A model generated the notes under the pieces. It searched no databases and was not told where the DNA came from. It worked only from the letters and a program-made list of their open reading frames with translations. From NCBI GenBank assembly GCA_023957335.1, contig JAMLHC010000001.1:124001-188000 (forward strand): a stretch of 64,000 nt of DNA, given 5' to 3'. This document shows, piece after piece, positions 35,255 through 35,294 of this stretch. Origin of the DNA: Bacteroidota bacterium. GTDB taxonomy: Bacteria > Bacteroidota > Bacteroidia > NS11-12g > UBA955. The first letter of the stretch is position 1; each line of letters opens with the position of its first letter. The position numbers and the translations under genes were made by a program.

Positions 35255-35294
35255 TGTGTGTGTGTGTGTGTGTGTGTGTGTGTGTGTGTGTGTG
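35255..35294. repeat. (TG)20 dinucleotide microsatellite in the T9SS operon leader
   Basis: Twenty uninterrupted TG units on the plus strand (CA on the minus). It lies 22 nt upstream of the ATG at 35233, between that start and the promoter box at 35368-35375, so it sits in the predicted 5' leader. The 346-nt stretch 35234-35579 otherwise holds only the two divergent promoters; I see no gene in it. Confidence 0.95.

What the first reader, a model, noticed from the sequence alone, without database searches (positions are those of the whole stretch)
35255..35294. (TG)20 microsatellite in the leader of a T9SS surface-protein operon
A pure run of twenty TG units lies between the predicted promoter (35368-35375, minus strand) and ATG 35233 of a glycine-rich T9SS cargo gene, which heads a two-gene unit of secreted proteins. 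Dinucleotide tracts this long are rare in bacteria and prone to slippage. Length changes could alter translation of the operon; if translation instead starts at GTG 35311, the tract is coding (THTHTH) and slippage would frameshift. Either way it is a candidate phase-variable switch for surface proteins.
Basis: partly seen in the sequence, partly recalled or inferred. Interest (0 to 1): 0.75.

Follow-up and report, generated by a model that had tools for sequence, protein, structure and literature searches.

The report
Slippery repeat switching a surface-protein operon
A run of twenty CA/TG units sits inside the very start of a secreted surface-protein gene, so that gaining or losing one unit should switch the protein on or off; a second copy of the operon and relatives in other genera carry a slippery repeat at the same spot, which makes it a likely, still untested, random on/off switch.

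Summary
The tract is real: 41 nt of pure alternation, window 35255-35295. It is not in an untranslated leader. Read from there the tract is coding: MKQLLQNHRRVCSAVV-(TH)n-GVNRKKA + signal peptide + T9SS type A protein. At the assembled length this ATG is out of frame (39 aa, then stop); minus one or plus two units restores about 830 aa.

The 2.77-Mb genome holds one other long TG tract, at the same place in a diverged second copy of the operon, also out of frame. All five long members of this family whose start is assembled, from two families, have a slippery repeat between ATG and signal peptide: (CA)20, (CA)19, (CA)9, C9, C8; two are in frame, three out. Bodies of the two copies are under purifying selection (dN/dS about 0.22). 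The same layout occurs in seven further inspected exported genes of the class.

Best explanation: a translational phase-variation (contingency) locus of a T9SS operon, working like Helicobacter oipA. Slippage and expression were not observed. The mechanism is known; I found no report of it for Bacteroidota T9SS cargo in the papers searched.

The parts
35397..35400 (-). TTTG, upstream promoter element (-33 type)
   Evidence: 21 nt upstream of TAACTTTG; identical in the paralogue
35368..35375 (-). TAACTTTG, TAnnTTTG -7 promoter element of Bacteroidota
   Evidence: 24 nt upstream of ATG 35343; TAnnTTTG lies 18-38 nt upstream of the leader ATG in all five tract-bearing family members
35341..35343 (-). 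ATG, proposed true start codon of gene 1
   Evidence: position relative to promoter; equivalent ATG reads in frame through the repeat in orthologues of G003 and G042
35296..35343 (-). Leader codons MKQLLQNHRRVCSAVV before the tract
   Evidence: promoter plus leader nearly identical in the paralogue
35255..35295 (-). (AC)20A slippery tract, coding (TH)n; (TG)20T on the + strand
35224..35226 (-). Stop codon met by the ATG 35343 frame at the assembled length (39-aa product, OFF)
35186..35254 (-). GVNRKKAMLLMGILTLFSGLSWG: basic n-region plus signal peptide; cleavage expected before Q (inferred)
   Evidence: sequence; aligned in relatives
32849..35254 (-). Gene 1 body: glycine-rich T9SS type A cargo (Por_Secre_tail)
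   Evidence: PF18962 E=1.3e-7, TIGR04183 E=3.6e-9
30390..32840 (-). Gene 2: T9SS type B cargo (CHU_C), 8 nt after gene 1
   Evidence: PF13585 E=1.8e-15, TIGR04131; gene pair kept in G003, G036, G042
30067..35579 (.). Accessory islet: absent from the same-genus genome G001, where the two flanking genes are about 0.25 kb apart

Best explanation
It is an ON/OFF contingency locus (translational phase variation). Transcription starts just upstream of ATG 35343. Translation from that ATG runs through a slippery (AC)n tract placed between the start codon and the signal peptide. Replication slippage changes n in steps of 2 nt, so only n = 1 mod 3 (19, 22 units) keeps the signal peptide and the 800-aa T9SS protein in frame. 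At n = 20, as assembled, a 39-aa peptide is made and the operon is predicted OFF, with likely reduced translation of gene 2, 8 nt downstream. A second, diverged operon copy has its own independent tract. Shown: sequence, frames, conservation of position, purifying selection on the body. Inferred: slippage and its rate, expression effect, polarity on gene 2, surface role.
For: (1) ATG 35343 lies 24 nt after TAACTTTG; TAnnTTTG lies 18-38 nt before the leader ATG in all five family members and in 8 of 12 loci inspected, chance 3.3% each. (2) The internal ATG 35233 would give a signal peptide without its basic RKK n-region (sequence). (3) The only other long TG tract of the genome is at the same place in a second operon copy with 76% aa identity. 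(4) Orthologues: (CA)9 in G003, in frame from its ATG (811 aa); C8 in G042, in frame; C9 in G036, out of frame, and the only C9+ tract of that 2.7-Mb genome. Position kept while the repeat unit differs argues that slipperiness itself is selected. (5) dN/dS 0.23 and 0.21 between copies with dS about 0.7, although both leaders are OFF: the genes are not decayed. (6) Of 12 loci with this layout 4 are ON and 8 OFF, near the 1/3 expected for a random frame. (7) Same layout in unrelated exported proteins of the class: lipoprotein G003 C40, G038, G009, G162, G265, G214, G269.
Against: No reads or second strain could be examined, so variation in n was not seen. The genomes used are assemblies, at least some of them metagenome-assembled, and repeat numbers may be off by one or more. 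GTG 35311 is in frame at n = 20 in this copy and could give weak expression. Low dS at the 5' end (0.16) suggests gene conversion between the copies, so they are not fully independent witnesses. By count alone, tracts within 5-35 nt of an ATGA are not more frequent class-wide than the reversed control (11 against 12 genomes). MutS1 is present; repair would slow, not abolish, slippage.
Confidence: 0.82

Rival explanations
1. The tract is a 5'-UTR spacer and translation starts at ATG 35233 (or an upstream in-frame GTG); length changes tune translation in a graded way.
For: ATG 35233 opens a long frame in both copies. A (AC)8 tract directly before an ATG exists in G049, an OmpA-like gene, so UTR tracts do occur in the order.
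Against: An ATG with ideal promoter spacing precedes the tract; orthologous ATGs read through it in frame; ATG 35233 truncates the basic n-region; GTG 35311 has no in-frame counterpart in the paralogue.
Confidence: 0.1
2. The tract is a neutral microsatellite, inherited with a duplication and tolerated in an unimportant leader; no selected switch.
For: Promoter and leader are nearly identical between copies, so the two tracts share an origin.
Against: Such tracts are almost absent elsewhere in the order (5 in 108 genomes). Orthologues in other genera have tracts at the same position, in part of a different unit. A fixed OFF frame would lead to decay, yet dN/dS is about 0.22.
Confidence: 0.06
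3. The repeat acts through DNA structure (Z-DNA-prone alternation) on transcription, not through reading frame.
For: (CA)n is Z-prone from general knowledge; the tract lies about 75 nt after the promoter element.
Against: Two orthologues have a short poly-C run, not CA, at the same place, which shares slipperiness but not the alternation.
Confidence: 0.02

Closest known systems
Helicobacter pylori oipA (hopH), CT dinucleotide repeats in the signal-peptide coding region (PMC10564699)
   Same: Dinucleotide tract in the 5' coding region of an exported surface protein; unit number sets the frame; ON/OFF.
   Different: Here the tract lies between ATG and signal peptide, the unit is CA (poly-C in some relatives), the product is a T9SS cargo of a Bacteroidota-type bacterium; switching not yet shown.
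Bacteroides inversion-based phase variation (as reviewed in PMC11868660)
   Same: Phase variation of surface components in Bacteroidota.
   Different: Works by DNA inversion between inverted repeats. Only an imperfect, AT-rich 15-nt pair spans this promoter, and the sequence upstream of the promoter is different in the paralogue.
Simple-repeat contingency loci of Campylobacter and Haemophilus (PMC6321876, PMC2651432; abstracts only)
   Same: Slippage in simple repeats of surface-related genes; several loci per genome.
   Different: Different phylum and secretion system; the repeat unit differs between orthologues here.

Membership tests
Simple-repeat translational contingency locus (oipA type) | Repeat inside the ORF between start codon and body, unit not a multiple of 3 | tested here: met
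   start codon inferred from promoter spacing and orthologues, not mapped
Simple-repeat translational contingency locus (oipA type) | Length change moves the body in and out of frame | tested here: met
   Computed for n = 0-25: full length only at n = 1 mod 3
Simple-repeat translational contingency locus (oipA type) | Slippery tract kept at the position in relatives | tested here: met
   5 of 5 long family members with assembled starts; in the sixth, G487, the contig ends about 20 nt before the place
Simple-repeat translational contingency locus (oipA type) | Repeat number varies among cells or strains of the species | not testable with these tools
   One genome per species, no reads; metagenome scans not available
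Simple-repeat translational contingency locus (oipA type) | Expression follows repeat number | not testable with these tools
   Needs experiment
T9SS cargo | Signal peptide and type A or B C-terminal sorting domain | tested here: met
   PF18962 / TIGR04183 in gene 1, PF13585 / TIGR04131 in gene 2; signal peptide by inspection only
Bacteroides inversion-based phase variation | Promoter flanked by good inverted repeats | tested here: not met
   Only a 15-nt, 87% complementary AT-rich pair; upstream sequence not shared by the paralogue

The most novel reading that the evidence does not exclude
Promoter, start codon, slippery repeat and signal peptide form a 5' cassette that is kept homogeneous by recombination, or moved, between diverged surface proteins, so that these bacteria combine random ON/OFF switching with swapping of bodies, and replace the repeat unit (CA, poly-C) while keeping the switch. 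Hints: the G487 relative has 41% aa identity in the body but 94% nt identity over the first 68 nt; dS between the two copies is 0.16 in the first 100 codons against about 0.6 or more in the middle.
Probability: 0.35. Interest if true: 0.75.

Novelty: new member of a known kind. Interest (0 to 1): 0.62.

Why it matters
In the 2025 review I consulted, the passages found on Bacteroides phase variation concern DNA inversion (PMC11868660). A repeat-driven switch of T9SS surface proteins, kept across genera and seen in seven further exported genes of the class, would add slippage to that repertoire. It would also mean that such genes may be annotated with a wrong, internal start or as frameshifted in metagenome assemblies. 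It is cheap to test by counting repeats in existing reads.

Tried and rejected
Structure prediction of gene 1 was poor (mean pLDDT 36) and was not used. Class-wide count of ATGA-N5..35-(AC)7 gave no excess over the reversed control, so generality rests on loci read one by one. A search for the leader in viral contigs and for gene 1 in plasmids found nothing. Poly-C tracts near the 3' ends of small genes were looked at and set aside as a different class. The C23 locus of the own genome was not counted as support because its body is in another frame than its signal peptide. GTG 35311 as a conserved start was rejected.

Full report
OBSERVATION. The window holds 41 nt of pure TG alternation at 35255-35295, the only dinucleotide run of five or more units in 64 kb. 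Dinucleotide shuffles give 0.01 runs of even six units per window. The genome G000 (2.77 Mb, 7 contigs, 99.95% complete) has exactly one other long tract, 39 nt at C2:78836-78874.

START CODON. On the minus strand the order is TTTG - 21 nt - TAACTTTG - 24 nt - ATG 35343 - tract (AC)20A beginning 48 nt after the A of that ATG - 21 nt - ATG 35233. From ATG 35343 the product is MKQLLQNHRRVCSAVV(TH)n...; at the assembled length it runs into TGA after 39 aa. Computed for every n from 0 to 25, the long product of 818-834 aa appears only at n = 1, 4... 19, 22, 25. ATG 35233 leaves out the basic residues (RKK) that precede the hydrophobic signal core. GTG 35311 is in frame here, but its counterpart in the paralogue is not, and the paralogue has no in-frame ATG, GTG or TTG upstream of the internal ATG.

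PARALOGUE. The second tract precedes a second copy of the whole two-gene operon (gene 1 76% aa, gene 2 78-79% aa identity). Promoter and leader are nearly identical between the copies. Distance from leader ATG to internal ATG is 110 nt here and 106 nt there, so both are out of frame; both would be in frame at 108 nt. The bodies have dN/dS 0.23 and 0.21 with dS about 0.7: they have been kept as proteins. dS is uneven along gene 1 (0.16 in the first 100 codons, 0.3 at the end, about 0.6 or more in the middle), which suggests gene conversion at the ends, so the two tracts are not fully independent evidence.

ORTHOLOGUES. A profile of the family over 108 genomes of the order finds five long members. 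Besides the two here: G003, another genus of the family, 37% identity, (AC)9 at the same place, in frame from MIKNYLTSNGNSNVLRVF-THTHTH; G042, sister family, C8, in frame; G036, sister family, C9, out of frame, and the only C9+ tract of that genome. A gene like gene 2 follows the first in all of them, with the CHU_C domain shown in G003 and G042. More distant relatives that I read (G021, G032, G005 and others) have no such tract there. A sixth long relative, in G487, sits on a contig that ends about 20 nt before where the tract would be; its first 68 nt are 94% identical to the window although the body is 41% identical in amino acids. G487 is assigned to another family with 4% contamination, so that contig may be mis-binned.

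GENERALITY. Within the order, (AC)8+ occurs at five places in 108 genomes: two here, one in the G003 orthologue, one in a G003 lipoprotein gene with the same ATG-tract-signal peptide layout, one just before the ATG of an OmpA-like gene in G049. Poly-C versions with the same layout occur in G038 and G009. In the wider class, loci in G162, G265, G214 and G269 show the layout with (AC)n, among them a 2000-aa T9SS protein in G214. Over 12 loci, 4 are in frame and 8 out. TAnnTTTG stands 18-38 nt before the ATG in 8 of 12, against 3.3% expected each. By simple counts over 395 genomes, however, the pattern is no more frequent than its reversed control, so I do not claim a class-wide excess.

CONTEXT. 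The operon is accessory: in the same-genus genome G001 the two flanking genes (a glycosidase and a cation efflux gene, named from sequence by my own reading) are adjacent. The paralogue on C2 is flanked on both sides by 21-bp repeats that in the window stand only downstream. MutS1 is encoded.

MECHANISM. Slipped-strand mispairing during replication adds or removes TG units; the ribosome starting at ATG 35343 then reads or misses the signal peptide and body. With two operon copies a cell could show neither, either or both proteins. Steps shown: sequence, frames, conservation, selection on the body. Steps inferred: slippage, expression, polarity on gene 2, surface function.

COMPARISON. The closest known case is oipA of Helicobacter pylori, with CT repeats in the region coding for the signal peptide (PMC10564699). 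The review of phase variation that I consulted mentions Bacteroides for inversion systems in the passages found (PMC11868660). Searches of the open library found no paper on repeat-driven phase variation of T9SS cargo or in Bacteroidota by these terms; subscription papers are not covered. I therefore file it as a new member of a known kind.

Noticed in passing
L095, L097, L099 (G000 C1:377.8 kb, C2:298 kb, C2:504.5 kb); L106, L108 (G001): Poly-C runs of 8-14 near the 3' end of a family of small genes; one frame ends ...PPPDTAYYLIEF*, the next frame gives another short tail, and another exported gene often follows closely. Possible C-terminal switching.
   Followed up: partly
L096:4058-4080 (G000 C2:126057-126079): A C23 run directly after ATGAAGTATATCTA, followed by a signal peptide in frame; the 268-aa body that follows is in another frame.
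   Followed up: partly
window 30217-30390; L029 3870-3972 and 9001-9208: Array of 21-bp repeats (GCTGAGCGTAGTATAGCGGTT type) downstream of the operon here and on both sides of its second copy.
   Followed up: no
G487 C64 (L233): Contig of a genome from another family with 94% nt identity to the window over the signal-peptide start but a 41% identical body; mis-binned contig or recombined leader.
   Followed up: partly
L063:982-2486 (G036 C27): The second gene of the G036 operon is split into two overlapping frames, so it may be frameshifted or mis-assembled.
   Followed up: no
G269 (class relative; L175, L186): A genome unusually rich in (AC)n tracts near ATGs and elsewhere, with similar leaders MKK...SHTHTH at several loci.
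   Followed up: partly
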